A stretch of DNA of 54,492 nt, taken from positions 1 to 54,492 of IMG/VR virus record IMGVR_UViG_3300035670_000271. One strand, 5' to 3'. Source of the stretch: a virus. Under the pieces are notes generated by a model, which saw only the letters and a list, made by a program, of their open reading frames with translations, was not told where the DNA came from and did no database searches. A program made the position numbers and the translations under genes. Below, one piece after another: positions 22,921 through 41,731 of the stretch. Positions within the stretch are counted from its first letter, which is position 1. Each line of letters begins with the position of its first letter.

Positions 22921-22935
22921 GAGAGAGGTGAACAC

Positions 22936-24284: not shown

Positions 24285-24285
24285 G

Positions 24286-25638: not shown

Positions 25639-25664
25639 TTCTTCCTCCCGCGTCTCACTCGACG

Positions 25665-25718
25665 CATAACGACAGCTTCAGCGGCGAAGAGGGGTGAGCC
25701 ACTCAAGCTGTCGTTAAT
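25665..25718. other. attC-like site at the distal end of the array
   Basis: TAACGACAGCTT (25667-25678) and AAGCTGTCGTTA (25705-25716) are perfect inverted arms around 26 bases. The left arm resembles the site at 30335 but the right arm is an exact complement and lacks unpaired bases. It follows the par operon end by 30 bases and marks the end of the array. Confidence 0.65.
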
Positions 25719-25720
25719 GA

Positions 25721-25924
25721 TTATTCTTCCCCGCGCCCCTCTGCTATCGTATTATGTTGTCGAATCATTGCCTGTGCATATATTACCGCATGGGTATAAT
25801 CATTTCTTAACGCAATTGATATGCCTCCTAATGGTTGCCATCCTTCACGTATCTTTTGTTTTACATTTTGTTGTAATATTCTGGAAGAGTTCCATTCCTC
25901 AATATGATAATCAACAATATTCAT
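25721..25924 (-). CDS. DUF1737-like cassette protein
   Basis: A 67-residue protein starting MNIVDYHIEEWNS at ATG 25924 (AGGTG upstream). The pattern KIREGWQPLGGISIAL, then a short strand and YAQAMIRQ, matches the DUF1737 family (typically ending in GWQPLGG.s and YQAMV). Function of the family is unknown. Its stop lies 3 bases from the attC-like site, as for other cassettes. Confidence 0.72.
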   Translation of the reverse strand: MNIVDYHIEEWNSSRILQQNVKQKIREGWQPLGGISIALRNDYTHAVIYAQAMIRQHNTIAEGRGEE

Positions 25925-25951
25925 CGTAATTTGCACCTATTATTAAATATG

Positions 25952-26034
25952 CCTAACAAGCCGCATGAGCGGCGAAAACCGCCTGGACGCTGTTCATCTT
26001 GGTTAATAGTTCCCGGCGGTTTTCGTCCGCTCTA
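25952..26034. other. Truncated attC site (right core missing)
   Basis: Left end CTAACAAGCCGCATGAGCGG and inner arms CGAAAACCGCC / GGCGGTTTTCG are intact, but after GTCCGCTC the expected ATGCGATTGTTAG is replaced by TAAGGGAACTTGG. Recombination at the right core should be impossible. Confidence 0.8.
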
Positions 26035-26070
26035 AGGGAACTTGGTTCACCATATTCTATCACTTAAACT

Positions 26071-26143
26071 GTGAACGGAGGCATAACGCGCTGAGGCCGC
26101 GCCATGCCTCCGTTCACACAATGATTAGTCTTCGCGCCCCGTG
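26071..26143. other. Hybrid attC remnant with a 14-bp inverted repeat
   Basis: CATAACGCGCTGAGGCCGCG resembles the left arm of the site at 31786, and CGTGTTAGC the right core. The middle is replaced: GTGAACGGAGGCAT (26071-26084) and ATGCCTCCGTTCAC (26104-26117) form a new perfect hairpin. The upstream gene reads into it. Confidence 0.6.
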
Positions 26144-26397
26144 TTAGCAATTTCAGCGCCAACCTGAAATGCCATATCACACGCCTCATCAGAAACATAA
26201 TCCAACTCAGAAAAACCGCTCAACGAATATCCTATAAGTTGCGCAAATTGTTCTCTGTCCTCTCGACAAAAAGGCATTCGCGCTATTTGATTCAAATCAA
26301 AAGGGCCGTCATTAAGCAAAAAACGTACAATTCTATTTTCAACAAATCTTAGAATTCCTTTCTCGTCGATTTCTATTGATTGTAAAGGGTGTCTCAT
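26125..26397 (-). CDS. Cassette protein of unknown function
   Basis: A 90-residue acidic protein (MRHPLQSIEIDEKGILRFVE) with the ribosome site GGAGGAAC. Features: FVENRIVRFLLND and YVSDEACDMAFQVGAEI. Its stop lies inside the hybrid attC, giving the tail NTGRED encoded by the recombination site. No family recognised. Confidence 0.68.
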   Translation of the reverse strand: MRHPLQSIEIDEKGILRFVENRIVRFLLNDGPFDLNQIARMPFCREDREQFAQLIGYSLSGFSELDYVSDEACDMAFQVGAEIANTGRED

Positions 26398-26530
26398 TCT
26401 GTTCCTCCGTAATTAGAACTTTATCCCAATTCGCTCAGGCGTGTCTTGATACGCATTATTAAGAGCATTCTGGAAACTACCTCTTCCGATATTGACTTCG
26501 TATCCTTCTGATTGTCTCCTTTAAAATATT
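26398..26530. other. Possible gene fragment between cassettes
   Basis: On the minus strand one frame reads EGYEVNIGRGSFQNALNNAY onward to a stop (about 34 residues) after an AAGGAG, but has no start codon. It looks like the remains of a small cassette gene whose start was lost, or a chance frame. Confidence 0.3.
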
Positions 26531-26627
26531 GCTAACAACGTGCATGAGCGGCGAAAACCGCCTGTGTGCTGTTCATTATTGTGAATCTCGCCCGGCGGTT
26601 TTCGTCCGATCCATGCGATTGTTAGAA
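26531..26627. other. attC site
   Basis: Left GCTAACAACGTGCATGAGC, right CCATGCGATTGTTAGAA, with inner arms CGAAAACCGCC and GGCGGTTTTCG. The right arm has extra unpaired bases after GCAT and after CGG. Follows the methyltransferase gene, whose stop lies inside the site. Confidence 0.9.
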
Positions 26628-27445
26628 CGCTCATCTCCCATACTAAAAAGATTCTGCTGCCGCGTGTCCTTCTCGATACGCTGACACGCTTTCTCAAAGA
26701 TTTCCGAGTCTTTCTCCATGCCGATCCATCGTCTGCCGGTTCTAAACGCGGCAACGGCTGTTGTCCCTGAGCCGATCACGTTGTCAAGCACCGTGTCGCC
26801 TTCATTCGTATAGGTTCTGATGAGATATTCAAACAGCGCAACCGGCTTCTGTGTTGAATGTATTGTTAACCCTGATTTTGTTGAGTTGAAAAAATCAGAC
26901 TCAGTTTTTACAGAAAATACTGAACGAGGGAGCCTTGATCCGTCTTTACTTCCTGACTCCTTTATTGGTGAAAATTCCCCATAGTTTCCATTCCGCTTTT
27001 GACGATATTTCTCATTCTTAAAGCTTGGTGTAGTCAACATGAATTTCTGTGGATGATACACGGGTAAACTCTTATAAAACACAAGGATATTTTCATGCCC
27101 TCGCAACGGCATCCTGTTTGAATTCAAAAATCCTGTCGCAATCGACTTCTCCCATACTAAATCGTACCGAAACAGCTTATGATTCGACACGACAAGAAAG
27201 CTGGTGAACGGTTCAGCCGCAGTCAATACAATCGCACCATTCTGTTTGATGATGCGCTCGTACTGTTCCCATAGTGGAGCAAACGGAATAACGACATCCC
27301 ACTTATTTTGAGTCGTGCCATACGGTAAGTCAGCAAGAATCATGTCGATGGAACTGTCAGGAATATCTTGCATTAATTCCAAACAGTCTCCTTCGTAAAT
27401 GATACCATGCTCAAAGTCTTGCTCTCTCACTGGCTGAGTCTCCAT
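26576..27445 (-). CDS. DNA methyltransferase (cassette)
   Basis: About 289 residues from METQPVREQDFEHGIIYEGD at ATG 27445. Motif IV DLPYGTTQNKWD (about 39-50) and a later motif I DNVIGSGTTAVAAFRTGRR (about 225-243) place it in the class with motif IV before motif I (beta-type N6-adenine/N4-cytosine). HSTQKP marks motif X-like region. It modifies DNA in a sequence-specific way, probably to protect the phage from host restriction; no paired nuclease is in this cassette. The C-terminal tail NNRMDRTKTAGRDSQ is encoded by the attC. Confidence 0.85.
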   Translation of the reverse strand: METQPVREQDFEHGIIYEGDCLELMQDIPDSSIDMILADLPYGTTQNKWDVVIPFAPLWEQYERIIKQNGAIVLTAAEPFTSFLVVSNHKLFRYDLVWEKSIATGFLNSNRMPLRGHENILVFYKSLPVYHPQKFMLTTPSFKNEKYRQKRNGNYGEFSPIKESGSKDGSRLPRSVFSVKTESDFFNSTKSGLTIHSTQKPVALFEYLIRTYTNEGDTVLDNVIGSGTTAVAAFRTGRRWIGMEKDSEIFEKACQRIEKDTRQQNLFSMGDERSNNRMDRTKTAGRDSQ

Positions 27446-27451
27446 TTGCGT

Positions 27452-27549
27452 TCTAACAACGCGCATGAGCGGCGAAAACCGCCCTGTGCACTGTTCATCT
27501 TGGTTAATAGTCCCCGGCGGTTTTCGTCCGATCCATGCGATTGTTAGCC
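27452..27549. other. attC site
   Basis: Left TCTAACAACGCGCATGAGC, right CCATGCGATTGTTAGCC with the same CGAAAACCGCC inner arms as the site at 26531, and the same two unpaired right-arm bases. It ends the 69-residue cassette. Confidence 0.9.
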
Positions 27550-27753
27550 TTTTTCCATTATCTTGTCGATCAAAAACTTTACATCATTTTCATGGACATA
27601 CGAATCATCACGACACATGCTCCATGCGTAATCTTTCAACCCTAATTCCTCAACAGTGGGAATATCCCGTAAAACAAAAGCGGCTGTCGCTGGATCGTCC
27701 CGTGTCAGAAACTCTTGCGCCGTCGCAATAGCTTTTTTAGTATGCTCTGTCAT
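27544..27753 (-). CDS. Cassette protein of unknown function
   Basis: A 69-residue protein starting MTEHTKKAIATAQEFLTRDD at ATG 27753, with AAGGAAATG upstream; the longer frame crosses the next attC. TVEELGLKDYAWSMCRDDSY is the central part. Stop inside the attC. No family recognised. Confidence 0.68.
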   Translation of the reverse strand: MTEHTKKAIATAQEFLTRDDPATAAFVLRDIPTVEELGLKDYAWSMCRDDSYVHENDVKFLIDKIMEKG

Positions 27754-27771
27754 TTCCTTCACCTTTAAGTG

Positions 27772-27880
27772 GCTAACGCTTGTTTTGCACCTGACCCAAA
27801 AGGGCGGGCGCAACACGCTTGAAAGTAAACCACTAATTTTTATGCCCGCCCTTTTGGGTCAGGTGCAAAACATTGTTCGC
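27772..27880. other. attC site with perfectly paired arms
   Basis: GCTAACGCTTGTTTTGCAC and the complementary GTGCAAAACATTGTTCGC, with TGACCCAAAAGGGCGGGC in the arm. Unlike the other sites, about 29 consecutive base pairs form without any unpaired base, so strand choice by an integrase may be impaired. Confidence 0.85.
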
Positions 27881-28035
27881 AGGCGTTTTGTGTATTCAAC
27901 ACGACTGCCGTGTTTTTGGTACTTCTGACACCCGCTAAGATGTCAGGTTGCCATCTCGGTTCGGTACGTTGACCGGTGCGTTACCTCACGAAAGCTCTAC
28001 ATGAGAGCAACACTTCACGCCTGCGAACGCATTGT
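27875..28035. other. Gene-less cassette with structured-RNA-like hairpins
   Basis: No open frame of note. GTTCGCAGGCGT (27875-27886) and ACGCCTGCGAAC (28018-28029) are perfect inverted ends. Inside are short hairpins: ACACG/CGTGT, TGACA/TGTCA and GCTCT/AGAGC. It ends with GCGAACGCATTGTTATGC, a left core joined directly to a right core, resembling a collapsed attC. It may encode a structured RNA or be a non-autonomous element. Confidence 0.45.
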
Positions 28036-28087
28036 TATGCAACTTGTTTATATTGTTAGACATACGAACACTATCCACAGGAGAAAG

Positions 28088-28187
28088 CATAACGACTGCG
28101 ATAACGCGCTGAAGACGCGCCTGCACAGACGCTCGTTCAATGTTAATCTTGCTGCGCGGCTTCAGTCGCGTTCATTGCTTTGTTAGC
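28088..28187. other. attC site
   Basis: Left CATAACGACTGCGATAACG, right CGTTCATTGCTTTGTTAGC; inner arms CTGAAGACGCGC and GCGCGGCTTCAG (one mismatch). Right arm again has two unpaired bases. The preceding gene ends inside it. Confidence 0.88.
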
Positions 28188-28451
28188 AATCTGTTCATAT
28201 TTTAAACCATGTGCTCTATGCGCTGCATTTACTGTCTCAAGCGTCGTTTCACACCAATGAAACAAAGGATGATCTTGATTTTTGCACATCCAAGAATCCT
28301 GCAATAATTTTATTTGTTCTTCTATGCGCGATAGATAATCATGAATGCTCATTTTATTAACTCTATCATGAGAATCTGAATGGCAAAAATCAGAAAATCT
28401 TTGTTCTTCTGCGCCCCTATTATATCCGTGACCCCATTGTTTCTTGCCCAT
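28143..28451 (-). CDS. Cassette protein with attC-encoded tail
   Basis: A 102-residue protein (MGKKQWGHGYNRGAEEQRFS) with AAAGGA upstream. It is charged and helical with several His and two Cys (WMCKNQDHPLFHWCETTLE). The C-terminus MNATEAAQQD is encoded by the attC arm, the signature of genes that end inside the site. No family recognised. Confidence 0.68.
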   Translation of the reverse strand: MGKKQWGHGYNRGAEEQRFSDFCHSDSHDRVNKMSIHDYLSRIEEQIKLLQDSWMCKNQDHPLFHWCETTLETVNAAHRAHGLKYEQIANKAMNATEAAQQD

Positions 28452-28474
28452 ACATATCCTTTCGTTCTAAGATT

Positions 28475-28570
28475 GCTAACAACGCGCATGAGCGGCGAAA
28501 ACCGCCTGGACGCTGTTCATTATTGGTAATCTCGCCCGACGGTTTTCGTCCGATCTATGCGATTGTTATT
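28475..28570. other. attC site
   Basis: Left GCTAACAACGCGCATGAGC, right TCTATGCGATTGTTATT, with inner arms CGAAAACCGCC and ACGGTTTTCG (one mismatch). Same family as 26531, 27452 and 31363. Confidence 0.9.
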
Positions 28571-28772
28571 CGTCCTTATCAATACATTCAATTTCTACTT
28601 TGCCGTTTGATTTGATAATAAATACAAACCTTTTTGATTTAGCATTTTCATGCGTTAAATCAAAACGCTGGCGCAATTCAGCAGGGATTGTCATCTGCCA
28701 ATGCTCTGATGTTTTCCCCTGGCTGACTCTTATAGCAATAGGTTTTGATTTGATTTCAAATTGTGGACTCAT
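28566..28772 (-). CDS. AbrB/SpoVT-like DNA-binding protein (cassette, second gene)
   Basis: A 68-residue protein starting MSPQFEIKSKPIAIRVSQGK at ATG 28772 by ATGA overlap with the upstream gene. HWQMTIPAELRQRFDL resembles the swapped-hairpin AbrB signature (usual form: ITIP.elR..lgL), followed by RFVFIIKSNGKVEIE. Such proteins often act as antitoxins or autorepressors; the promoter upstream has a palindrome in its spacer. Together with the 73-residue gene before it, this could be a toxin-antitoxin pair, unproven. Confidence 0.65.
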   Translation of the reverse strand: MSPQFEIKSKPIAIRVSQGKTSEHWQMTIPAELRQRFDLTHENAKSKRFVFIIKSNGKVEIECIDKDE

Positions 28773-28990
28773 GCCGGTATTTTGCCCCCAGGCCAAAATT
28801 TACGATACTGTGATGCTTCGTAATCAGCTTGCCAGTATTCCTTTTGCGCTAATTCGTAACAATGCTTTAGCCCAGGAGATACCCTCCCGTGTTTTTTTGC
28901 GTCGTCTACCATTTCTTTATGCGCTTCCCGTCTTTTCTTGACGGCTTTATCCAAATCTTTTTTCACGTTACGCCATGCACGGTATCCCAT
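28769..28990 (-). CDS. Cassette protein of unknown function (first gene of a pair)
   Basis: A 73-residue, very basic helical protein (MGYRAWRNVKKDLDKAVKKR). It has GGGGGAAATATA before ATG 28990 and its own strong promoter at 29054-29082. It is coupled to the AbrB-like gene. Charge and partner suggest a toxin or a DNA/RNA-binding factor, but there is no recognised family. Confidence 0.62.
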   Translation of the reverse strand: MGYRAWRNVKKDLDKAVKKRREAHKEMVDDAKKHGRVSPGLKHCYELAQKEYWQADYEASQYRKFWPGGKIPA

Positions 28991-29053
28991 TATATTTCCC
29001 CCATTTCTTGTTTGAGTTCTTTCAACGTCTATACGTTCACTTAACTAATATAC

Positions 29054-29082
29054 AGTATAATATACCGACAGGTATTTGTCAA
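29054..29082 (-). promoter_or_regulatory. Cassette-borne promoter with operator
   Basis: TTGACA (29082-29077), exactly 17 bases, TATACT (29059-29054). The spacer contains ATACC and GGTAT inverted around 4 bases (29062-29075). It drives the two-gene AbrB-like cassette, so this cassette does not depend on an array promoter. Confidence 0.8.
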
Positions 29083-29147
29083 GCGTTTATCAAAAATATT
29101 TACTCTCAGGTGTGATTTTTTCAATAAACGCTGCAAACAGGAAGACG

Positions 29148-29246
29148 GATAACGAGCGCATAACCGGCTTTGGAGGGCGCGTGCTCACTTCACCACGAGG
29201 TGAAATTCCCCGCGCCCTCCAAAGTCCGGTTCATGCGTTTGTTATG
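29148..29246. other. attC site
   Basis: Left GATAACGAGCGCATAACCGG, right CCGGTTCATGCGTTTGTTATG, with arms TTTGGAGGGCGCG / CGCGCCCTCCAAA. Two unpaired right-arm bases. Nearly the same sequence as the site at 35735. Confidence 0.9.
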
Positions 29247-29299
29247 ACTTCGGTTTATTTTGCGATTGCTACAATACGATCTTTCTTGAATTTACGCTC

Positions 29300-29352
29300 G
29301 CACCATGTTAGTGTTCCGGCGCGGTTTCAGTCGCGTTCATTGCAGTGTTATA
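29300..29352. other. Half attC site (right arm only)
   Basis: GGCGCGGTTTCAGTCGCGTTCATTGC and GTGTTATATC match the right arm of sites such as 28088-28187, but no complementary left arm lies within the following bases on the left. It directly abuts the intact site at 29148-29246, so a deletion or illegitimate recombination has fused two cassettes. Confidence 0.65.
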
Positions 29353-29559
29353 TCACCCACCACCTGCCACAGCTTTTCCGAATGATTCTTTCACAGAATG
29401 GACAGATAATTCTCCCCAAATGCAAGGATCGTAAGTCATTTCTTTTTTGATGATTTCCTGCGCTTCTTCTAATGATTCAGCAATAGCGAACGCTAACCCA
29501 GAAGTATAGTCAGGAGAAAACCCTTCCCAAACATATAATTGTAATTTATTTTTTGCCAT
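29353..29559 (-). CDS. Cassette protein of unknown function
   Basis: A 68-residue protein (MAKNKLQLYVWEGFSPDYTS) with GGAGGGAATC upstream. LAFAIAESLEEAQEIIKKEM follows; the pattern of a short beta strand, a helix and WGELSVH resembles small immunity-like or DUF-type cassette proteins, but I cannot name it. It ends next to the half attC. Confidence 0.66.
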   Translation of the reverse strand: MAKNKLQLYVWEGFSPDYTSGLAFAIAESLEEAQEIIKKEMTYDPCIWGELSVHSVKESFGKAVAGGG

Positions 29560-29584
29560 GATTCCCTCCGCTCGTAGTTAGTGA

Positions 29585-29686
29585 TATAACGACTGGCATA
29601 ACCGGCAAAAGCCGCGCCAGTACTTGGTTTATAGACTATCCAAATTCGCCGCGCGGCTTTTGTCCGCGTTCATGCCTTTGTTAGGC
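29585..29686. other. attC site
   Basis: Left TATAACGACTGGCATAACCGG, given here in part; right CGCGTTCATGCCTTTGTTAGG; arms CAAAAGCCGCGC / GCGCGGCTTTTG. Unpaired bases at the same two right-arm positions. The HTH gene to the right ends inside it. Confidence 0.9.
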
Positions 29687-29901
29687 TTCTGTTTCATTTT
29701 GACTGCTGCAATTTCTCGCTCACGCTTCGATTTCGGCATGTTGCGAAAAAAAAAGATCGCGCGTTCAAGATACAAAGGAACTGGCCGTTCTCCTGTCGTC
29801 ATGCGATAAATGACAGGGCGATGAGAGCCTAACAACAAGGCGGCCTGACGTGGATTTAGGCCATATTCCTCCAAGAATGTGTTGAGTTCGTCTTGTGTCA
29901 T
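29629..29901 (-). CDS. HTH regulator in a two-gene cassette
   Basis: About 90 residues from MTQDELNTFLEEYGLN at ATG 29901 (an earlier ATG at 29958 lies inside the upstream gene). The helix-turn-helix is NPRQAALLLGSHRPVIYRMT, followed by GERPVPLYLERAI, close to small Cro-like repressors. The C-terminal GMNADKSRAANLDSL is encoded by attC, a typical cassette read-through tail. It probably represses its own promoter at 30196-30224. Confidence 0.7.
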   Translation of the reverse strand: MTQDELNTFLEEYGLNPRQAALLLGSHRPVIYRMTTGERPVPLYLERAIFFFRNMPKSKREREIAAVKMKQKPNKGMNADKSRAANLDSL

Positions 29902-29929
29902 AGCATGAAAGGGGCTTTCGCCCCTCTGT

Positions 29930-30139
29930 TTAGATTTCTGAAAAATCTTGAGCATCAAAATTCAATTCGCCCATGTTCGTTTCTACTGTGTATGATACAG
30001 CGATAAAGTATCCTGGTTTATTTTTGTATATGGTCGGCTCTTCAATTTTTGTTTCGACTCTTTCCGCTGAATACACTTTGCCAGATTCTATTCCAAAAGA
30101 TTTGTTGAAATCGTTATTTGCTTTAACTTGAACTCTCAT
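29930..30139 (-). CDS. Small cassette protein, first gene of the HTH pair
   Basis: A 69-residue protein starting MRVQVKANNDFNKSFGIESG at ATG 30139, with AAGGAG upstream; the longer frame lacks a ribosome site. It is beta-rich (SAERVETKIEEPTIY, FIAVSYTVETN). It precedes the HTH gene under one promoter, an order seen in small regulatory or toxin-antitoxin cassettes. No family recognised. Confidence 0.66.
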   Translation of the reverse strand: MRVQVKANNDFNKSFGIESGKVYSAERVETKIEEPTIYKNKPGYFIAVSYTVETNMGELNFDAQDFSEI

Positions 30140-30195
30140 TTTTATTCTCCTTGTTGTTAGTGTTTTTGTTTTCCCTCTCATCAACTTACAAGTTT

Positions 30196-30224
30196 AATAT
30201 AGTACCAATGGTACTTTTTGTCAA
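30196..30224 (-). promoter_or_regulatory. Cassette-borne promoter with operator
   Basis: TTGACA (30224-30219), 17 bases, TATATT (30201-30196). AGTACCA and TGGTACT form a perfect inverted repeat with one central base at 30201-30215, inside the spacer. A repressor bound here would block polymerase; the HTH protein encoded downstream is the natural candidate. Confidence 0.82.
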
Positions 30225-30334
30225 GCACTTTCTCACATTTTTTTGAATTATTTTATATAATTCCTGAAAATGCCTGATTCATAGGGAGCACAAGGAGAAA
30301 ATATTTTATCAAAGAACGCTGTTGATGGTAGAAG

Positions 30335-30445
30335 CCTAACGACAAGCTTCAGCAGCTTGGAAGGGCGGGCGGCAACCAAGCGTGAAGTAAAACAACAGAC
30401 TTTCTACGCCCGCCCTTCCAAGTCTGCTGCAAGCATTTGTTCGGG
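30335..30445. other. attC site
   Basis: Left GCCTAACGACAAGCTTCAGC, right CTGCAAGCATTTGTTCGGGC, arms CTTGGAAGGGCGGGCG / CGCCCGCCCTTCCAAG. Extra unpaired bases after GCTT and after CAG in the right arm. The small membrane gene ends inside it. Confidence 0.88.
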
Positions 30446-30619
30446 CTTCTTTCGTCTCATAACCACATCCTGCCATAAAAGAAAACTATTGGCTAAAATT
30501 ACCCCAAACCAAGCAATCCCTCTAAACAAACTGATTCCAATTATACTGATGATAATCGCAAAGATACGAATAGTCATCAGTGAACGATTGTTTAATATGG
30601 TCTCTTGCATGTTGGACAT
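30404..30619 (-). CDS. Small membrane protein (cassette, second gene)
   Basis: About 71 residues (MSNMQETILNNRSLMTIRIF), or 68 from the second Met. Two hydrophobic segments, TIRIFAIIISIIGISLF and GIAWFGVILANSFLLW, are probable transmembrane helices. Its start overlaps the end of the methyltransferase gene by 28 bases. The end (LEGRA) is encoded by attC. Function unknown. Confidence 0.6.
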   Translation of the reverse strand: MSNMQETILNNRSLMTIRIFAIIISIIGISLFRGIAWFGVILANSFLLWQDVVMRRKKPEQMLAADLEGRA

Positions 30620-31344
30620 ATCCCTTTTGTTGACGCTGTTGGTTTTGAACCAACATTGATCCCGAAATTTTCTTTGATTGGATGTGGGCCTAAATATACG
30701 CCTTGCGTAAACGACCCCGCACCATATAATAACTCAATAATCTCTTGCTTTTGTTGGTCTGATAATGTTTTAAACCAATCCTGTTCAAATGCAAGAAAAT
30801 TTCGATTGAGAACCTTACAAGATGCAGGAACTGTGCCACCACCTGTAAAGGGATCAAAAATAATTGCTTGCGTTGATGTCAGCCTGTCTATGTAATACAG
30901 ATACGGCCCCGCCTGTTTATGCCACTTATGATTTCCTGATAATAACGCCGGATTCCCATCAACAAAATAATCTCTTGTTGGCTTATTCACAGTAGGAATG
31001 CCCTTTCTAAATACAAGAATAGAGTGCCAACAAGAAAACATTTTCATTGCGCCAAAAATATTGAGTGCTGGACGATAGCAGGCTATTTGCCAAATAAATT
31101 CAATTGTTTCATTTTGAACAGCTTGAAGTGTTTCAAAGAGCCGTTTTTGTGCGTGCCATACTAAACAAGCTGAATTTGGCTTCAATATCCGCGCTGCTGT
31201 TTCTCCGAGCCATTTATAATCATCAACGTTTTCATAAATGGGATCAGTGAAAATCAGGTCAACCGATTCATCGGGAATGCCCTTTGACAATTCTCTGGCA
31301 TCGCCTGTATAGATTTGGTTGAGTTCGTATTCTCCGAGTTTCAC
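30592..31344 (-). CDS. DNA methyltransferase (cassette)
   Basis: A 250-residue protein with a GTG start at 31344 and GAGGTGAGACA upstream. Motif IV FTDPIYENVDDY (about 32-43; DPIY in place of the usual DPPY) and motif I FDPFTGGGTVPASCKVLNR (about 165-183) follow the order of beta-class amino-methyltransferases. The C-terminus has CPTCKRPY, a possible metal site. Likely protects phage DNA against restriction. The small membrane gene follows in the same cassette. Confidence 0.82.
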   Translation of the reverse strand: MKLGEYELNQIYTGDARELSKGIPDESVDLIFTDPIYENVDDYKWLGETAARILKPNSACLVWHAQKRLFETLQAVQNETIEFIWQIACYRPALNIFGAMKMFSCWHSILVFRKGIPTVNKPTRDYFVDGNPALLSGNHKWHKQAGPYLYYIDRLTSTQAIIFDPFTGGGTVPASCKVLNRNFLAFEQDWFKTLSDQQKQEIIELLYGAGSFTQGVYLGPHPIKENFGINVGSKPTASTKGICPTCKRPY

Positions 31345-31362
31345 TGTCTCACCTCAAGCAGC

Positions 31363-31458
31363 AGAACAACACGCATGAGCGGCGAAAACCGCCCTGTGCT
31401 CTGCTTATTATTGTTAATAGTCCCCGGCGGTTTTCGTCCGCTCGATGCGATTGTTAGA
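31363..31458. other. attC site
   Basis: Left AGAACAACACGCATGAGC, right TCGATGCGATTGTTAGAC, arms CGAAAACCGCC / GGCGGTTTTCG. The left core is GAAC rather than TAAC. Two unpaired right-arm bases. Confidence 0.88.
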
Positions 31459-31762
31459 CATGATTAATTGCTACCTGCGTTAATTTAGCAATTACCCAAA
31501 CACGTAAGTCTGACAAATCTTTATTCACCTCAGCGGCACACTCAAGCCAGCGTTCTCCCGCCATCACATCGAACAGAATATGTCCCTTATAATCGCCATG
31601 CGTGTATTCTATATTTTTTACAGACATATCCAAAAATTGAGCGCAAGCATTGACTTCTTTCTGTACGGATTCTTGTCTTGCAATCTGCGATTGCAATGCT
31701 TGTGGATCATCATACTTCCCCCTTGCTAATCCTGCTATGTCGGAAAACTTTGATAATTTCAT
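31454..31762 (-). CDS. Cassette protein of unknown function
   Basis: A 102-residue protein (MKLSKFSDIAGLARGKYDDP). NIEYTHGDYKGHILFDVMAG and LRVWVIAKLTQVAINHV are alpha/beta. The stop is in the attC. It is a typical small cassette protein without a recognised family. Confidence 0.68.
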   Translation of the reverse strand: MKLSKFSDIAGLARGKYDDPQALQSQIARQESVQKEVNACAQFLDMSVKNIEYTHGDYKGHILFDVMAGERWLECAAEVNKDLSDLRVWVIAKLTQVAINHV

Positions 31763-31785
31763 TTCTTACCACTCCTGTGAGTATT

Positions 31786-31884
31786 GCTAACGACTGGCAT
31801 AACGCGCTGAGGCCGCGCAATGCTGCCGTTCACACAATGTTAATCTTCGCGCGCGGCCTCAGTCGCGTTCATGCCTTCGTTAGA
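31786..31884. other. attC site
   Basis: Left GCTAACGACTGGCATAACG, right CGTTCATGCCTTCGTTAGAC, arms CTGAGGCCGCGC / GCGCGGCCTCAG. Unpaired bases in the right arm after GCAT and after GCG. The upstream RHH-like frame ends inside it. Confidence 0.9.
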
Positions 31885-32126
31885 CATCCTCCCTGTTATC
31901 CTTTGAGCCTCTTTCAACGCTCCCTCTCTCACGATCTTTGATTCTTCAATCCCTGAAACCTCAACAGCCAATTCAATTATATGCCGTTCCTCTTCCGAGA
32001 AACGATAGACCTTACGAATAGTTCGGCGTTTTTCTTCTGGCTTCTCGGCGTTTTTGTATGTGCCAGGGCGGAGTCCCTGGTTTCGATTATCTTCTCGATT
32101 ATCTCTTTGAATTCTAAATCATCCAT
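31840..32126 (-). pseudogene. Frameshifted ribbon-helix-helix-like cassette gene
   Basis: The ATG at 32126 opens MDDLEFKEIIEKIIETRDSA but runs out of frame after about 49 codons. Another frame encodes the more protein-like KVYRFSEEERHIIELAVEVS and onward, an RHH/DUF1778-like pattern, ending MNATEAARED inside the attC, with no start codon of its own. A single-base shift near 32055-32065 would join the two parts. It is either a pseudogene or an assembly error. Confidence 0.55.
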
Positions 32127-32153
32127 ATCTTTTGTTTGTATTACAGAGCGGTT

Positions 32154-32262
32154 TCTAACGATCGCAAATCACCGGCGACAAAGGGCGGGCGGGAAAAGCC
32201 TGTAATACAGCAACCAAGTTTTAGGCCCGCCCTTTGGCGTCCGGTGCATTTGCATTGTTATG
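32154..32262. other. attC site
   Basis: Left TTCTAACGATCGCAAATCACC, given in part; right CCGGTGCATTTGCATTGTTATGC in part; arms CAAAGGGCGGG / CCCGCCCTTTG. Two unpaired right-arm bases. The RHH gene ends inside it. Confidence 0.88.
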
Positions 32263-32452
32263 CTGCGTCTATTGTCTTTTCAACTAACTGACGCAGCCAC
32301 TTTTGATACGACTTAAACCCGGCCACTTTTGCCGCCTGAATGATGTGCTTTTTCAATTCCGGCTCACACCTGAAAGACACTTGCACATCTTTTGTGCCGT
32401 CTTTAGTGGAGCCGGTTGGTCTCCCGGCTCCTTCTCGTTTCCCGCCTCGCAT
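32258..32452 (-). CDS. Ribbon-helix-helix DNA-binding protein (cassette)
   Basis: A 64-residue protein, MRGGKREGAGRPTGSTKDGT and onward, with a basic arm, strand KDVQVSFRCE and helices PELKKHIIQAAKVA and YQKWLRQLVEKTI, the RHH fold. It starts by TAATG overlap with the 90-residue gene before it. It is probably a repressor or antitoxin for that gene and its promoter at about 32.8 kb. Confidence 0.75.
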   Translation of the reverse strand: MRGGKREGAGRPTGSTKDGTKDVQVSFRCEPELKKHIIQAAKVAGFKSYQKWLRQLVEKTIDAA

Positions 32453-32724
32453 TAGTATGCCTCGTATCCTTCAATTTCCCAATCCAGTTGATCCAACTCC
32501 TCAACCTTATCGAGAGCATCCTGCATCTGGTAGTAATAGGCTACAAGGGTGCGTCGTTCGCCTTCTGCGTCCGTGTAGTTTATGGATGCCGTAAACTCAA
32601 CAGATTGATCGCCGTCCGTCTGTACCCGCCCGCTAAAATCGCAATTCTCACGATCTAATGCTTCAACAACTTCTTTACTAGCTTCTACGATTGCCTGATC
32701 TCTCGTTAATTTACCGTGTCTCAT
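32452..32724 (-). CDS. Cassette protein of unknown function, partner of an RHH gene
   Basis: A 90-residue acidic protein (MRHGKLTRDQAIVEASKEVV) starting at ATG 32724, with GAGGTGAAA upstream. Beta strands SVEFTASINYTDA and RRTLVAYYYQ follow. Coupled to the RHH gene and transcribed from its own promoter. The pair could be regulatory or toxin-antitoxin, which is not shown. Confidence 0.62.
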   Translation of the reverse strand: MRHGKLTRDQAIVEASKEVVEALDRENCDFSGRVQTDGDQSVEFTASINYTDAEGERRTLVAYYYQMQDALDKVEELDQLDWEIEGYEAY

Positions 32725-32779
32725 GTGTTTCACCTCGTTTGCTTGACGTTTTTAAAATTTCCATTTACTGAGTATAGTC

Positions 32780-32809
32780 TTAATATAAGCATTATAGAAT
32801 TTTTGTCAA
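32780..32809 (-). promoter_or_regulatory. Cassette-borne promoter
   Basis: TTGACA (32809-32804), 18 bases, TATTAA (32785-32780), upstream of the two-gene RHH cassette. The -10 is only fair, so the exact start is uncertain. The 170-base leader (32740-32908) holds no gene. Confidence 0.5.
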
Positions 32810-32908
32810 GCAAATAATCTAAATATTTACACAAACAAGACGATTTTTTGAGGTCAAAACCTGAGAACGCCTGATCTTGTAGGCAAGAACTTTTTACGAG
32901 TGAAGCAG

Positions 32909-33013
32909 CATAACGACGCGCATAACCCGCCAAAAGCCGCGCGCCGAATTGTTTCACGAACACCGGCCACGCTCTCCGCGCGGGTTTTGGTCGGGGTTCA
33001 TGCGATTGTTATG
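32909..33013. other. attC site
   Basis: Left CATAACGACGCGCATAACCC, right GGGGTTCATGCGATTGTTATGC in part; arms CCAAAAGCCGCGCG / CGCGCGGGTTTTGG with one mismatch. Unpaired right-arm bases present. Confidence 0.88.
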
Positions 33014-33203
33014 CCGCACATTTCCAAATTTTAACATTCCCCTGATTACTTGCCTTCCAGTAAGCATGCTTTTCTGCCCATCGCATTAGGCGAACAAGGC
33101 TAAATCTTGACACCCCATAATATTTACGATAATGCCACCCGATACACACAAGGTTTTTCACTCCTGGAAGATTATCATATATTGCGATACCTGTCTTCTT
33201 CAT
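33009..33203 (-). CDS. Small cassette protein of unknown function
   Basis: A 64-residue basic protein starting MKKTGIAIYDNLPGVKNLVC at ATG 33203, with GGGGAGAA upstream; the longer frame is read-through of an attC. RFSLVRLMRWAEKHAYWKAS is helical. The stop overlaps the next attC. No family recognised. Confidence 0.6.
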   Translation of the reverse strand: MKKTGIAIYDNLPGVKNLVCIGWHYRKYYGVSRFSLVRLMRWAEKHAYWKASNQGNVKIWKCAA

Positions 33204-33234
33204 TTCTCCCCTTTGCCGCTTACTTTTTAAGCGG

Positions 33235-33373
33235 CATAACGCTTGGCTTGAGGTGCTTGGGGGACGCCCTTCAGCGGAGCAACCAAGCCCGAACCCCCTC
33301 TGAACGATATGGCGGACAACCTCTGCTGAAATCACCGCGCGTCCCCCAAGTCACCCTCCAAGCCTTTGTTCGC
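33235..33373. other. Long attC site
   Basis: Left GCATAACGCTTGGCTTGAGG, right CCTCCAAGCCTTTGTTCGC, arms GCTTGGGGGACGC / GCGTCCCCCAAGT, around a loop of about 75 bases, making it the longest site (139 bp). Three unpaired right-arm bases. Confidence 0.85.
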
Positions 33374-33385
33374 GATGCTCTCTCG

Positions 33386-34960
33386 TTATAACAATTGTTG
33401 TTGCGTACTTTCTTGAATATGCTTGCCAGCCGTTTTAAAGACGCCATGCGTCGTCATGGGCATTTTGACCTGTTCACCATCCAATAGCTGTTCAATCGTC
33501 AGAAGTTGAATCGTCGGAAACTGTGTCGCATAGACGCCAAGCTGCTCACCATGCGGAGAATAAAAGCCTTCCTGCTTGGCTTCTCGAATCATGGGCGTCG
33601 TCACCTGTTCCTGAAAACACACAAACACTCCAATTGCGGCTTTTTGAGACTTCACGACGTGAATAAACTCTCTCAGGTTCTTGACATTCACCTTGCCGCT
33701 TTTGACTTCGATCAGCACGGTTTCTTTCTTCTTGCCCATCGCAAAGGTCATGTGCCCATCCCATCCGCCATCTGCGGTTTTCTTGGGATTACTGACACCT
33801 GACAACACAAATTCAATGACCCAATCCTGAAATTTAAACCGACCATTGTCGTCACTTTCCGCTAAAGCTTTGGCTGAGGCGATGTCTTTTGGAATGCCAA
33901 ACACTTCAAAGGTGTGACGAATTTCAGCATATTTTGTGTCATACGTCTCCTGAAGGCGTTTCATGACCAGTTTGATTGAGAGATGTGAAATGTCAACGCC
34001 TAACCATCGGCGGCCTAATTTTTGGGCGACAGCGATGGTTGTCCCGCATCCACAGCAAAAGTCAGCCACCAGATCGCCTTCGTTGCTGCTCGTTTTGAGA
34101 ATACGTTCAAGTAGTTCTTCTGGTTTTTGGGTCGGATACCCTAAACGCTCTTTTGCCATTGGATTGATATGAAAAATATCATTCCATAAATTATTCATAG
34201 GAACGCCTTTCAGGGTATTGATGTATTGCTTATATTCTGGCTTTCCTGATTTTGTCCACCGCAACATATCTTGTGATTCAAGGTCGTGTAACTTTTCATC
34301 AGAATATGTTTTCATCGCTTGCCAACGATATTTCCCTTTTACGTCTTGATACTTGAACCGTTTGAGATAAGTTTCTCCATATTCTCGATACAGCTTATTA
34401 AAGGTAAATTGTTCAGTCTTTGTATAAAATAAAATCGTATCAGTATCGGCACTGAATCGTTTTGAGAGAGATTTGCTACTCCCAGTGTTTGTCGTTCTTT
34501 GCCAAATAATTTCATTTTGAAAATATCGTTCACTAAAAATCATATCACAGGCTATCTTCAAATAATGGCTCATTGTTGGGTCACAGTGCAAATAAAAGCT
34601 TCCAGTGTCTTTCAGTACCTTGTACATATACCATATTCTGAGAGCCATCGTACAGAGATACGATATAGCTGCCTTTGGGAGTGACGTATTATCAAGCACA
34701 TTCAGCACGTTATACAGGTCAAGATCAATCTCATGAATCTCGTTCAATGTGTCGAGATAGGACACTTGACTCCATGTATCGGCAAACGCTTCTTTTTGGG
34801 CTTTGGTGTCTTGCAAGTCCACATCTTCAAACAAAATGTTATAGTTCCGTTTTGAGTTAAACGGAGGGTCAATATAAATCAGATCAATAAAGCCGTTTGG
34901 ATGCGCGGCATACAGTTGTTTGAGTATATCGAGATTATCACCAAAATATAATGCATTCAC
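33386..34960 (-). CDS. Methyltransferase fused to an Mrr-like restriction endonuclease domain
   Basis: A 524-residue protein. Residues 1-350 are a beta-class N6/N4 methyltransferase: motif IV IYIDPPFNSKRNYN (about 28-41) and motif I VADFCCGCGTTIAVAQKLGRR (about 287-307, shown in part). The last 170 residues hold a PD-(D/E)XK nuclease-like core: GGWDGHMTF with Asp, VLIEVKSGKV with E-x-K, and AAIGVFVCFQE. It may be a single-chain restriction-modification enzyme, or the nuclease part may only bind DNA. Ribosome site AGGTG before ATG 34960. The largest cassette gene. Confidence 0.85.
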   Translation of the reverse strand: MNALYFGDNLDILKQLYAAHPNGFIDLIYIDPPFNSKRNYNILFEDVDLQDTKAQKEAFADTWSQVSYLDTLNEIHEIDLDLYNVLNVLDNTSLPKAAISYLCTMALRIWYMYKVLKDTGSFYLHCDPTMSHYLKIACDMIFSERYFQNEIIWQRTTNTGSSKSLSKRFSADTDTILFYTKTEQFTFNKLYREYGETYLKRFKYQDVKGKYRWQAMKTYSDEKLHDLESQDMLRWTKSGKPEYKQYINTLKGVPMNNLWNDIFHINPMAKERLGYPTQKPEELLERILKTSSNEGDLVADFCCGCGTTIAVAQKLGRRWLGVDISHLSIKLVMKRLQETYDTKYAEIRHTFEVFGIPKDIASAKALAESDDNGRFKFQDWVIEFVLSGVSNPKKTADGGWDGHMTFAMGKKKETVLIEVKSGKVNVKNLREFIHVVKSQKAAIGVFVCFQEQVTTPMIREAKQEGFYSPHGEQLGVYATQFPTIQLLTIEQLLDGEQVKMPMTTHGVFKTAGKHIQESTQQQLL

Positions 34961-35021
34961 ACCTGGCGTTCATCTTTCGTATAGCCTCATATACGCTTAG
35001 TTAAGAGACTATACCAAAGCG

Positions 35022-35118
35022 AACGACTGGCATAACCGGCAACAGCCGCGCCTTCCAGCCGCTTGCACTATGTTAATGTTTCGGCGCGGCTGTTGTCCGC
35101 GTTCATGCCTTTGTTAGC
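35022..35118. other. attC site
   Basis: Left GCGAACGACTGGCATAACCGG in part, right GCGTTCATGCCTTTGTTAGC, arms CAACAGCCGCGCC / GGCGCGGCTGTTG. Left core GAAC. Two unpaired right-arm bases. Confidence 0.88.
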
Positions 35119-35316
35119 AATCTGATTTTTATTTACTTGACATATCATAATATACTTACTATCTTTATCTTGATGATAGTTGAGCATAGCGACTTTTTAT
35201 CAAGTCCGCCGTGACTGCTCAGGAAATTAACTCTAATACAAGGATGAAACAAGTTCATTTCGTATAGCGTTATACGTTGCTTTCCAGACTACATCAAAGC
35301 GAACGCCGCCCCAGGT
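35119..35316. other. Gene-less stretch in the array
   Basis: No convincing gene; a 37-codon minus frame (MNLFHPCIRVNFLSS) lacks a ribosome site. It has a TTGACA at 35138 with a weak -10 in the plus direction, and a second GCGAACG core near 35300 next to a CCCCAGG/CCTGGGG hairpin followed by TTTT. The latter may be a damaged attC or a plus-strand terminator. Confidence 0.4.
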
Positions 35317-35709
35317 CTAAGCAGCCTGGGGCTTTTCATTATAACATGATAAGCATCCATCTCGTTTATCACACTCCGTCACATCACACGAAGAATTTAC
35401 CATATCATCCTGCATACGTCGCCGTTCTTCATCTGGCAATACATTCCATGCGTATTCTGCATGGTTTAGACAATATTTGCCTCCACAAACCTGCTCAGGC
35501 TCTTCTCCGTGATATTTACGGATAGTATTGACAGATTGAACGCTGATGTAAAGACTGTATCTTGAGTCTGCCTCATCAGTATTTTGAATCTGAATTGTCT
35601 GGTCATGCGGAGTGACAACCTGCACAATTTGAATAATTTCTCCATCGCCATATTCTTCTACTTCTTCTGTATGAATGTTTTTAAAATGAACCCAATCACC
35701 TATTTTCAT
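35317..35709 (-). CDS. Cassette protein of unknown function with C-terminal cysteines
   Basis: A 130-residue protein (MKIGDWVHFKNIHTEEVEEY). The N-terminal part is beta-rich (GDGEIIQIVQVVTPHDQTIQ, SRYSLYISVQS); the C-terminal half has CGGKYCLNH, CDVTECDK and CLSCYN, at least seven Cys in a likely zinc-binding arrangement. Ribosome site GGGAGTGG. No family recognised. Confidence 0.65.
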   Translation of the reverse strand: MKIGDWVHFKNIHTEEVEEYGDGEIIQIVQVVTPHDQTIQIQNTDEADSRYSLYISVQSVNTIRKYHGEEPEQVCGGKYCLNHAEYAWNVLPDEERRRMQDDMVNSSCDVTECDKRDGCLSCYNEKPQAA

Positions 35710-35734
35710 ATCTCAATGCCACTCCCATAAGATT

Positions 35735-35832
35735 GCTAACGAGCGCATAACCGGCTTTGGAGGGCGCGTACTCACTTCCCACGAGGCAAAAGTTCCCGCG
35801 CCCTCCAAAGTCCGGTTCATGCGGTTGTTATG
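35735..35832. other. attC site of the first cassette
   Basis: Left GCTAACGAGCGCATAACCGG, right CCGGTTCATGCGGTTGTTATG in part, arms TTTGGAGGGCGCG / CGCGCCCTCCAAA, about the same as at 29148. Two unpaired right-arm bases. Confidence 0.92.
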
Positions 35833-36034
35833 CAGATTTGTCTCCATGAATCGGGAAATTCCATTCACGACATTTCCCATACGCTTCTTTCGCTGCTTTA
35901 TCATCGTTGCCTTTAATGCCAAGTCCGATTTTATCACGACAACTAACTCCACACCATCCAGTTAAATGCGGCTTTACGTGTTGATTACAATATACCCATT
36001 GATTCTCACCAAATACTTTTGCATCTTCTTCCAT
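35828..36034 (-). CDS. First cassette gene, small protein with GWC motif
   Basis: A 68-residue protein (MEEDAKVFGENQWVYCNQHV) with GGAGAAAGAC before ATG 36034. YCNQHVKPHLTGWCGVSCRD has His and Cys residues spaced as in a small zinc-binding unit; similar 60-70 residue proteins with HxxxH-like and GWC elements are frequent in integron arrays, to my recollection. As the cassette next to the recombinase it should be the best expressed. Stop inside the attC. Confidence 0.68.
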   Translation of the reverse strand: MEEDAKVFGENQWVYCNQHVKPHLTGWCGVSCRDKIGLGIKGNDDKAAKEAYGKCREWNFPIHGDKSA

Positions 36035-36058
36035 GTCTTTCTCCTCTCTTCATGAACG

Positions 36059-36065
36059 GCATAAC
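36059..36065 (-). other. attI-like core
   Basis: Minus-strand GTTATGC between the recombinase promoter and the first cassette gene, the same heptamer that forms the right core of several attC sites here (33008, 32257 and 35827). In an integron, the first cassette boundary would be the G/T step. No flanking inverted structure is apparent, as expected of attI. Confidence 0.5.
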
Positions 36066-36075
36066 AATTATTATA

Positions 36076-36104
36076 TTGACAAATTCTATATCTAATATTA
36101 TATT
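36076..36104 (+). promoter_or_regulatory. Promoter of the IntI-like gene, with divergent cassette promoter
   Basis: Plus strand TTGACA (36076-36081), 17 bases, TATATT (36099-36104), AAGGAG, ATG 36133. In the other direction a perfect TATAAT lies on the minus strand near 36074-36069, 35-40 bases before the first cassette gene, a possible Pc-like promoter, though its -35 is weak. Confidence 0.7.
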
Positions 36105-36132
36105 AATACACAGAAAGTCAAGGAGAAAATAC

Positions 36133-36864
36133 ATGAAAACAAAAAAATATGACGAATATCTACTCTATCTCTATAGTTTTTCACAACTTAGCAAACAAAC
36201 AATCTGTGCGTATCTCTCATGGTCAGCAAAGCTCTGTCTCTGGGTTGGGGTCGCGCATCCGTTGGACGTGCCGCCGGGAAAAATTGACGAATTTCGCCTC
36301 TATCTACTTAACGAGAAAAAATTCTCATGGAAGAGCGATACGGTTGTGTTTAACGCTTTGAAGCACACCTACTCGACGCTCTTGAAACATGTTGAACCAG
36401 AAGAGGCCAAGAAATATGCGAATATCTTCCGCACGTCACCACGACAGCCTAACACCCTGCCGCGCTATGTGACACAGGAGAGCATGGCCGCCTTTTGCGC
36501 GGCGCTTCCTGCGACGATTGCAGGCAATCTCTTGCGATCAAGCTATCAGACGGGAAAAACGGTAGATATGATTTTGGCCAAGGCGGAAAAGCCCTGGAAA
36601 GTCTCGCAGAGATACCTGCAACAAGTTTGTCTAAAGACCGCGCTGAAAGTCGGTATGCCGAAAGGGTTCGGCGTGACCGGAGTCAGGGGTGCTGGCATCT
36701 TACACAGAATCCAAAACCGACAGACGGATTTAGAATTGACAGCCATTCGTGAGGATTCCGGCCTGTCACATGCGCAGTTTCTCTTGTATTGTCGAGCGGC
36801 AGGTGTGACCGGGTTATCTGGGAATGCAACCAGACAACGCCACCGCAAGAAGAAGCAAGCATAA
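36133..36864 (+). CDS. IntI-like tyrosine recombinase, catalytically degenerate
   Basis: A 243-residue protein with AAGGAG before ATG 36133. N-terminal core-binding domain: LSKQTICAYLSWSAKL, then GVAHPLDVPPGKIDEFRLYL and NEKKFSWKSD, close to IntI/Xer SAM-like domains. LPRYVTQESMAAFCAALP matches the domain junction. In the catalytic part, the first Arg region reads YQTGKTVDMIL (expected TGlRisEll), the HxLR box reads TGVRG (His lost, Arg kept), the second His region reads SGLSHAQ, and Tyr is kept in LLYCRA. The middle strands are missing, giving 243 rather than about 320-340 residues. It is divergent from the cassette array, the IntI position. It is probably inactive, or a DNA-binding relict. 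Confidence 0.72.
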   Translation: MKTKKYDEYLLYLYSFSQLSKQTICAYLSWSAKLCLWVGVAHPLDVPPGKIDEFRLYLLNEKKFSWKSDTVVFNALKHTYSTLLKHVEPEEAKKYANIFRTSPRQPNTLPRYVTQESMAAFCAALPATIAGNLLRSSYQTGKTVDMILAKAEKPWKVSQRYLQQVCLKTALKVGMPKGFGVTGVRGAGILHRIQNRQTDLELTAIREDSGLSHAQFLLYCRAAGVTGLSGNATRQRHRKKKQA

Positions 36865-36874
36865 CAGATAGAAT

Positions 36875-37177
36875 CTATATCGCATAAGACTTCCGAATTC
36901 CGGCGTAAATCGCTCGGTAAACGAACCACCACGCCAACGTAATGGGGATATTGGCAAGAATCCAATCCACCACTGGCAAAAACGCAAACTGAGCGCCCAC
37001 AATCGTTTCTACGACGCGGGGGGCATGATGGAGGATTACGCCACACGCCACAAGATTTACGAGCACCTGTGGCGTGTAGACCCTATAAATTCGGTAACTC
37101 TGAATAGCGAGCGCCAAAAAGATCGCAAACTCTAACGCCATGAGGCAAAACGAAATACTATACAGAATCGTCTTCAT
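36875..37177 (-). CDS. Small three-helix membrane protein (holin candidate)
   Basis: A 100-residue protein with three hydrophobic segments: about residues 5-26 (LYSISFCLMALEFAIFLALA), 36-52 and 68-92. It has GAGGAAGAG upstream and is the last gene of the late operon, convergent with the recombinase gene. Size and topology fit a holin, but there is no adjacent endolysin and no family signature. Confidence 0.5.
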   Translation of the reverse strand: MKTILYSISFCLMALEFAIFLALAIQSYRIYRVYTPQVLVNLVACGVILHHAPRVVETIVGAQFAFLPVVDWILANIPITLAWWFVYRAIYAGIRKSYAI

Positions 37178-37186
37178 CTCTTCCTC

Positions 37187-38854: not shown

Positions 38855-38857
38855 AGA

Positions 38858-39196
38858 TTACACCTCGAAATCTTCCAAAATATCAGCAGCAAGACGTTCC
38901 AATTCTCGGCCAATCCGCTGAAGAGTTGCCCGCTGCTTCTGCGTATGTCGTGGACTTGCATTCTCAGTATCTTTACATCGTACAGGAATCCACTGTTCAG
39001 AGGGCGCGCGGTCTGTTGTGCCGTCAGATAATACCCTGATCGGAACAAGGGACACATTCAATTTGATTCCAACAACCCCGGCGCTATCAGCCGTCAATGC
39101 GGCATTAACATAAAAATCGGCTGTTGTATAAACATTTTCAGGCTCTACGCTTCCCGGCTTTGGCGATTTCGGATGTTTTAATAGTAATCGTTGCAT
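38858..39196 (-). CDS. Late protein of unknown function
   Basis: A 112-residue protein (MQRLLLKHPKSPKPGSVEPE), a beta-rich middle (DSAGVVGIKLNVSLVPIRVL) and a helical C-terminus. It lies between the membrane coiled-coil protein and the fibre and has AGGAGG upstream. Possibly a fibre or chaperone accessory; not recognised. Confidence 0.6.
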   Translation of the reverse strand: MQRLLLKHPKSPKPGSVEPENVYTTADFYVNAALTADSAGVVGIKLNVSLVPIRVLSDGTTDRAPSEQWIPVRCKDTENASPRHTQKQRATLQRIGRELERLAADILEDFEV

Positions 39197-39222
39197 TTTT
39201 TCCTCCTTCTATTCTGGTGGTG

Positions 39223-41719: not shown

Positions 41720-41731
41720 AGTATCCTCCTC

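What the first reader, a model, noticed from the sequence alone, without database searches (positions are those of the whole stretch)
36133..36864. IntI-like recombinase that has lost its catalytic residues
The gene stands exactly where intI should be, divergent from the array, and its N-terminal domain and C-terminal Tyr region align by eye with IntI/Xer. But the first catalytic Arg is replaced (TGKTVDMIL), the HxLR histidine is lost, and the middle strands are deleted (243 residues). So the phage seems to keep an array without a working local integrase, depending on a host enzyme in trans, or the protein was kept as a DNA-binding factor.
Basis: partly seen in the sequence, partly recalled or inferred. 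Interest (0 to 1): 0.85.

Follow-up and report, generated by a model that had tools for sequence, protein, structure and literature searches.

The report
Dead integrase-like protein beside phage integron
A complete phage genome carries a long array of integron gene cassettes, and the gene that sits where the cassette-moving enzyme should be encodes a related protein that has lost the cutting chemistry, so it is probably kept, if at all, as a DNA-binding protein.

Summary
The ORF is real (36133-36864 +, ATG, 243 aa) and stands divergent from a genuine integron cassette array (25.7-36.07 kb, 16 full attC sites, cassettes on the - strand) in a complete 54-kb tailed-phage genome. Its N-terminal half is a tyrosine-recombinase core-binding domain; integron integrase IntI is its best relative in NCBIfam, PDB and plasmid searches. 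Its C-terminal half has no significant profile similarity to IntI. Register-matched segment scoring and structure prediction support a shrunken, helix-only catalytic domain: the beta-sheet with the catalytic Lys and the IntI-specific insert is gone, and Arg I, His II and His III are absent. Only Arg II (R185) and Tyr (Y219) remain. It cannot be filed as IntI, and strand exchange is very unlikely. An intact 243-codon frame, phage-like codon composition and a near-consensus promoter and RBS argue against a mere pseudogene. Best reading: a catalytically dead IntI/Xer-fold protein kept as a DNA-binding factor, perhaps acting on the attI/promoter region; the function is inferred. Phage-borne arrays, intI pseudogenes and a dead recombinase turned phage repressor (MrpR) are each known. 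The combination appears new, but the protein is a singleton here, so decay cannot be excluded.

The parts
36133..36864 (+). intI-like gene, 243 aa; core-binding domain ~res 6-96, helix-only degenerate catalytic domain ~res 115-222; kept R185 and Y219, T182 and L211 at His positions, Arg I/Lys strands missing
36076..36104 (+). sigma70-like promoter TTGACA-17-TATATT (11 of 12) for the intI-like gene; AAGGAG ribosome site at 36120-36125
36059..36065 (-). attI-like R box GTTATGC, entry point of cassette 1 (no attC-type palindrome on the intI side)
36094..36121 (-). weak promoter-like match (9 of 12, TTGACT-16-AATATT) pointing into the array, possible Pc
36061..36104 (.). two imperfect 17-nt direct repeats (36061-36077, 36088-36104), one at the attI R box and one over the intI promoter; AT-rich, may be chance
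25661..36065 (-). integron cassette array; 17 cassettes scored for own 5' end against own R'', plus remnants at the distal end
35733..35833 (-). attC of cassette 1
   Evidence: 81.6 bits
35017..35118 (-). attC of cassette 2
33233..33373 (-). attC of cassette 3 (methyltransferase)
32907..33013 (-). attC
32152..32263 (-). attC
31784..31884 (-). attC
31360..31458 (-). attC
30333..30444 (-). attC
29583..29685 (-). attC
29146..29246 (-). attC, preceded at 29290-29352 by a truncated half attC
28473..28570 (-). attC
28086..28187 (-). attC
27770..27880 (-). attC
27450..27548 (-). attC
26529..26626 (-). attC
25950..26050 (-). attC (distal end of array)
35828..36034 (-). cassette 1 ORF, 68 aa, no family match
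33386..34960 (-). cassette ORF: DNA methyltransferase (N6_N4_Mtase) with Mrr-like domain
30592..31344 (-). cassette ORF: weak/partial DNA methyltransferase
26576..27466 (-). cassette ORF: DNA methyltransferase (N6_N4_Mtase)

Best explanation
The gene encodes a catalytically dead tyrosine-recombinase-fold protein that stands in the intI position of a phage-borne integron. Shown: the core-binding domain, the gene layout, a genuine cassette array, an open frame with a near-consensus promoter and RBS. Supported but not proven: the C-terminal half is a collapsed catalytic domain (helices around Arg II and Tyr kept; beta-sheet, Arg I, Lys, both His and the IntI-specific insert lost), and the protein descends from the IntI or IntI-adjacent Xer branch. 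Inferred: it can no longer exchange strands but still binds DNA, most likely at the attI/promoter region between itself and cassette 1, where it could modulate its own promoter and cassette expression or occupy recombination sites. The cassettes were inserted by a competent IntI, either an ancestor of this gene or a host enzyme.
For: N-terminal homology: Pfam SAM_4 1.4e-7, IntI4 the only PDB sequence hit, TIGR02249 the best NCBIfam model, hhalign to five IntIs 93.7%, E=2e-7 over res 13-134, block score z=11.3, 0/3000. Catalytic loss: alignments of 34-35 sequences keep R185 and Y219 only, against 79 of 80 viral-contig IntIs with the whole set intact. Structure: AF2 with IntI alignment pLDDT 85.3, helix-only C-terminal domain; top PDB hits are XerA 7e-5, IntI4 1.1e-4, XerH, Cre, lambda Int; without an alignment the Arg II to Tyr helices are the best-predicted part (10-residue blocks of pLDDT 56-79 from residue 191 on). 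Retention: no stop in 243 codons although the protein is only 17-24% identical to IntIs; chance of a stop-free frame at this composition 4e-5, 5-13 stops in the other frames; codon-position GC like the phage portal and terminase and unlike the cassettes; promoter 11/12 and RBS. Setting: own 5' end matches own R'' across 17 cassettes, sum 141 against permuted mean 77, 0 of 100,000. Precedent: MrpR of phage SPbeta has the recombinase fold, lost recombinase function and acts as DNA-binding repressor (PMC10516654); it is in the Foldseek list at rank 26 (8bpz, E=0.36).
Against: No DNA-binding or expression data. The protein is a singleton: apart from an identical contig of the same virus no closer relative than about 30% over the N-terminal domain was found, so selection cannot be measured. 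C-terminal homology is not significant by HMM, and the AF2 model leans on the supplied IntI alignment. Single-sequence AF2 is poor overall (pLDDT 39). In the N-terminal tree the branch is 4.6 changes per column and the canonical IntIs exclude it at 99/99. The candidate binding repeats are AT-rich and could be chance.
Confidence: 0.5

Rival explanations
1. Decaying remnant: an intI gene captured together with the array lost its catalytic middle by an internal in-frame deletion and is drifting without function.
For: Pseudogenes are about one third of intI genes in a bacterial survey (PMC2426708); truncated intI genes beside arrays occur in phage-linked integrons too (PMC9892861); the array itself shows decay (half attC at 29290-29352, stub near 28034).
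Against: Frame fully open with P about 4e-5 by chance despite very high divergence; near-consensus promoter and RBS; codon composition matches phage core genes. A recent deletion in an already divergent intI would leave a recognisable C-terminal half, but none is detectable by HMM in any frame.
Confidence: 0.25
2. Not IntI-derived: a phage Xer-like or MrpR-like DNA-binding protein that lies next to the array by chance or because the array was inserted beside it.
For: Very long branch outside the canonical IntI clade; no IntI-specific insert; G+C 0.49 like the phage core, against 0.43 for the array; the model preference for IntI over Xer is only about 5-6 bits.
Against: IntI is the best match in the PDB, NCBIfam and plasmid searches, and the gene stands divergent, 68 b from the cassette entry box, exactly the intI layout.
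Confidence: 0.2
3. The phage keeps the array under control of a host IntI acting in trans, and the local protein has no role in recombination.
For: Phage-borne attC sites of virulent phages are substrates of IntI1 in E. coli (PMC9892861); attC-like hairpins of the same end type occur in widely different bacterial and archaeal genomes.
Against: No host is known and there is no cassette variation between the window and the overlapping contig (100% identical), so nothing shows that the array moves now. Compatible with the best explanation rather than exclusive of it.
Confidence: 0.3
4. The protein is still an active recombinase with an unorthodox active site.
For: Tyr and one Arg are retained in the alignment.
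Against: Arg I, Lys, His II and His III are all missing and the catalytic beta-sheet is absent. MrpR keeps the Tyr and Lys and its authors conclude that it has lost recombinase function (PMC10516654).
Confidence: 0.03

Closest known systems
IntI integron integrases (TIGR02249; IntI4 structure 2a3v)
   Same: Core-binding domain, divergent position next to attI-like box and cassette array
   Different: No IntI-specific insert, no Arg I/Lys/His II/His III, 243 instead of about 320-340 residues, outside the canonical clade in the N-terminal tree
MrpR (YopR) of Bacillus phage SPbeta (8bpz; PMC10516654)
   Same: Phage protein with tyrosine-recombinase fold that lost recombinase function; example of a dead recombinase working as DNA-binding repressor
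   Different: Not among the sequence matches in the PDB, larger catalytic domain; no integron is mentioned in the passages read; its function is proven, here it is inferred
Phage-borne integrons and CALINs (Qi et al. 2023, PMC9892861)
   Same: attC arrays with DNA-methyltransferase cassettes in tailed phages, including virulent ones
   Different: There the arrays lack intI, or carry an intact or simply truncated one; here a divergent, frame-intact, catalytically dead homologue holds the intI position beside 16 attC sites
intI pseudogenes of bacterial integrons (Nemergut et al. 2008, PMC2426708)
   Same: Integron with a non-functional integrase next to its array
   Different: Those are mostly stops or frameshifts in recognisable intI genes; here the frame is open and the catalytic domain is remodelled beyond sequence recognition

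Membership tests
IntI integron integrase | Tyrosine-recombinase catalytic set R-K-H-R-H/W-Y | tested here: not met
   only R185 and Y219 retained; 79 of 80 viral IntIs retain the whole set
IntI integron integrase | IntI-specific additional domain between patches II and III | tested here: not met
   whole stretch gapped in the alignment; no remnant in other frames
IntI integron integrase | N-terminal core-binding domain of the IntI/Xer type | tested here: met
IntI integron integrase | Score above family cut-off (TIGR02249, 265 bits) | tested here: not met
   22.3 bits
IntI integron integrase | Falls within the IntI clade | tested here: inconclusive
   on the IntI side of the Xer/IntI split (97/87) but outside the canonical IntIs (99/99), end branch 4.6
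IntI integron integrase | Gene next to attI, divergent from cassette array | tested here: met
Integron cassette array | attC sites with R''/R' boxes, imperfect hairpin, consistent orientation | tested here: met
   16 full sites, each scoring better on the - strand
Integron cassette array | Cassette 5' end complementary to its own R'' (circular-cassette memory) | tested here: met
   0 of 100,000 permutations as good
Complete (functional) integron | Active cis-encoded intI | tested here: not met
   single IntI-like match in the genome, catalytic residues missing
MrpR-like repressor | Recombinase fold with lost catalysis | tested here: inconclusive
   fold predicted with an IntI alignment only
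MrpR-like repressor | Specific DNA binding and repression of phage promoters | not testable with these tools
   needs binding and expression assays

The most novel reading that the evidence does not exclude
A phage has turned the integrase of a captured integron into a dedicated non-cutting DNA-binding regulator of its cassette array and of its own promoter, so that cassette movement is left to host integrases while the phage controls expression or protects the recombination sites.
Probability: 0.25. Interest if true: 0.75.

Novelty: new variant of a known kind. Interest (0 to 1): 0.5.

Why it matters
If the protein is a retained regulator, it would be an integron whose integrase has changed from enzyme to DNA-binding factor inside a phage, parallel to MrpR. 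It would also be a testable case of a virus keeping a stockpile of cassettes (several of them DNA methyltransferases, plausible anti-restriction cargo) while outsourcing recombination. If it is only decay, it shows that phage arrays can outlive their integrase, as in bacterial arrays without intI.

Tried and rejected
Relatives by peptide patterns in viral contigs, with the whole protein, the C-terminal part and an N-terminal alignment, and in genome contigs: only a contig of the same virus, or IntIs at about 30%. Host identification by attC end pattern: attC-like hairpins in several unrelated phyla, so no host. PHROGs: no family for the protein. C-terminal IntI HMM and six-frame search for catalytic remnants: negative. 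Single-sequence AF2 model and its fold search: uninformative globally. Considered and rejected: an assembly or frameshift artefact (an identical 11.3-kb contig exists) and the gene being a cassette ORF (opposite strand, outside the entry box). IntI repression of the cassette promoter was looked for in one review without finding a citable passage, so it is left as an unsupported idea.

Full report
What is there. The window is a whole virus record with a 127-base direct terminal repeat (1-127 = 54366-54492), so probably a complete genome. It encodes a Mu-type portal fused to a Mu F-like domain, a large terminase, a major head protein, a VapE-type helicase, a primase-polymerase, an ERF annealing protein and a YqaJ nuclease: a tailed phage. 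An 11.3-kb contig of sample 3300034073 is 100% identical over 30584-41894, so the gene and array are not a single-assembly artefact. No second IntI-type recombinase was found in the genome.

The array. Between about 25.7 and 36.07 kb lie attC sites on the - strand. A covariance model built from 13 of them recovers 16 full sites; the reverse orientation of the same palindromes scores much lower. Hairpins with unpaired bases on one arm are seen directly. Across 17 scored cassettes the first bases from the GTT box match the reverse complement of the same cassette's R'' box; the summed match length is 141 against 77 expected when R'' boxes are permuted, never reached in 100,000 permutations. That is the memory of circular cassettes inserted by an integron integrase. 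It does not tell which integrase did it or when, because cassettes keep this memory when whole arrays are moved. Cassette ORFs include two clear and one weak DNA methyltransferase, as reported for other phage arrays (PMC9892861). The array also carries a half attC and a 59-base stub cassette, signs of some decay.

The gene. The ORF 36133-36864 + is divergent from the array. The entry box of cassette 1 (GTTATGC, 36065-36059 on the - strand) lies 68 bases from its ATG, with no attC-like palindrome on the gene's side, so the layout is intI-attI-cassettes. A sigma70-like promoter TTGACA-17-TATATT (11/12) and AAGGAG precede the ATG. The frame has no stop in 243 codons, with a chance of about 4e-5 at this composition and 5-13 stops in the other frames. 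Codon-position G+C (0.51/0.42/0.54) resembles portal and terminase rather than the cassettes.

Homology. The N-terminal half is a core-binding domain of the IntI/Xer type: Pfam SAM_4 1.4e-7, TIGR02249 integron integrase as best NCBIfam model, IntI4 as the only PDB sequence match, an annotated integron integrase among the best plasmid matches, hhalign E=2e-7. BLASTP with an IntI runs from residue 15 to 141 and stops at YQTG/YGTG, just where the first catalytic Arg follows in IntI. Beyond that point HMM similarity vanishes and no catalytic remnant is found in other frames. An ungapped IntI block (the helix before Arg II plus the Arg II helix) nevertheless has its best position at residues 159-195, in the expected order and register, z=3.3, 22 of 3000 shuffles as good; smaller blocks do not stand out. 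With 33 IntIs as alignment AlphaFold2 gives pLDDT 85.3 and a helix-only C-terminal domain; the beta-sheet carrying Lys and the insert are absent. Foldseek returns XerA, IntI4, XerH, Cre and lambda Int on top and phage integrases in the viral library; TM-scores are low (0.3-0.4). Without alignment the model is poor (39.1) except around helices 184-222. The alignment-based model is not independent evidence. In the 34-sequence alignment R185 (Arg II) and Y219 are invariant, while Arg I and Lys fall in gaps, and T182 and L211 stand at the His positions (the Tyr column depends on the alignment, it is placed otherwise in the 6-sequence version).

Family. An IQ-TREE of the N-terminal columns puts the protein on the IntI side of the Xer/IntI split (97/87) together with one IntI-like sequence that lies below the family cut-off, and outside 30 canonical IntIs (99/99), with an end branch of 4.6 changes per column. 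Descent from IntI is therefore likely from position plus sequence but not proven, and the protein fails the defining features of IntI. Searches found no nearer relative.

How it most likely works. Strand exchange is very unlikely without Arg I, Lys and both His. The retained core-binding domain, intact frame and promoter favour a DNA-binding role. The nearest proven precedent is MrpR of SPbeta, with the recombinase fold, lost recombinase function and a job as master repressor (PMC10516654). A natural target is the 70-base region between the ATG and cassette 1, which contains two imperfect 17-nt direct repeats, one on the attI box and one over the promoter, and a weak promoter match into the array; these are AT-rich and could be chance. 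Any effect on cassette expression is inference. Present-day cassette movement, and a host IntI in trans, are untested.

Verdict. Observation partly confirmed, interpretation partly supported. Phage arrays, intI pseudogenes and dead recombinases as regulators are each known; their combination in one frame-intact gene at the head of a 16-attC phage array is a new variant of a known kind, resting on a singleton.

Noticed in passing
L065-L144 (viral contigs): At least 173 stretches in IMG/VR encode IntI relatives (best 80 kept); 79 of these 80 keep all catalytic positions, and many have attC-like sites nearby. Phage-associated integrons may be far commoner than published counts, though prophage boundaries and host contamination were not checked.
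   Followed up: partly
L123:7905-8927 and L120:7953-8948: Intact IntI genes (PF00589 plus SAM_4) on contigs that also carry Mu-type portals related to the window's portal, with attC-like sites just upstream; the IntI lies on the same strand as the neighbouring cassette-like ORFs.
   Followed up: partly
L097, L099, L115, L117, L126, L140, L144: Seven of 80 viral-contig IntI matches contain an in-frame stop under table 11: pseudogenes or recoded stops.
   Followed up: no
window 27781-27872: attC with perfectly complementary 29-nt arms (I1), unusually long and without the usual unpaired bases in these arms.
   Followed up: no
window 22801-24033 + and 24229-25638 +: Two + strand genes at the distal end of the array; the second has weak HerA/FtsK-type ATPase similarity, the first matches nothing.
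   Followed up: no
window 28028-28093 and 29290-29352: A 59-base stub cassette and a half attC inside the array, marks of deletions.
   Followed up: partly
L028, L031: attC-like hairpins of the same end type on contigs titled Methanophagales and Methanosarcinales archaea.
   Followed up: no
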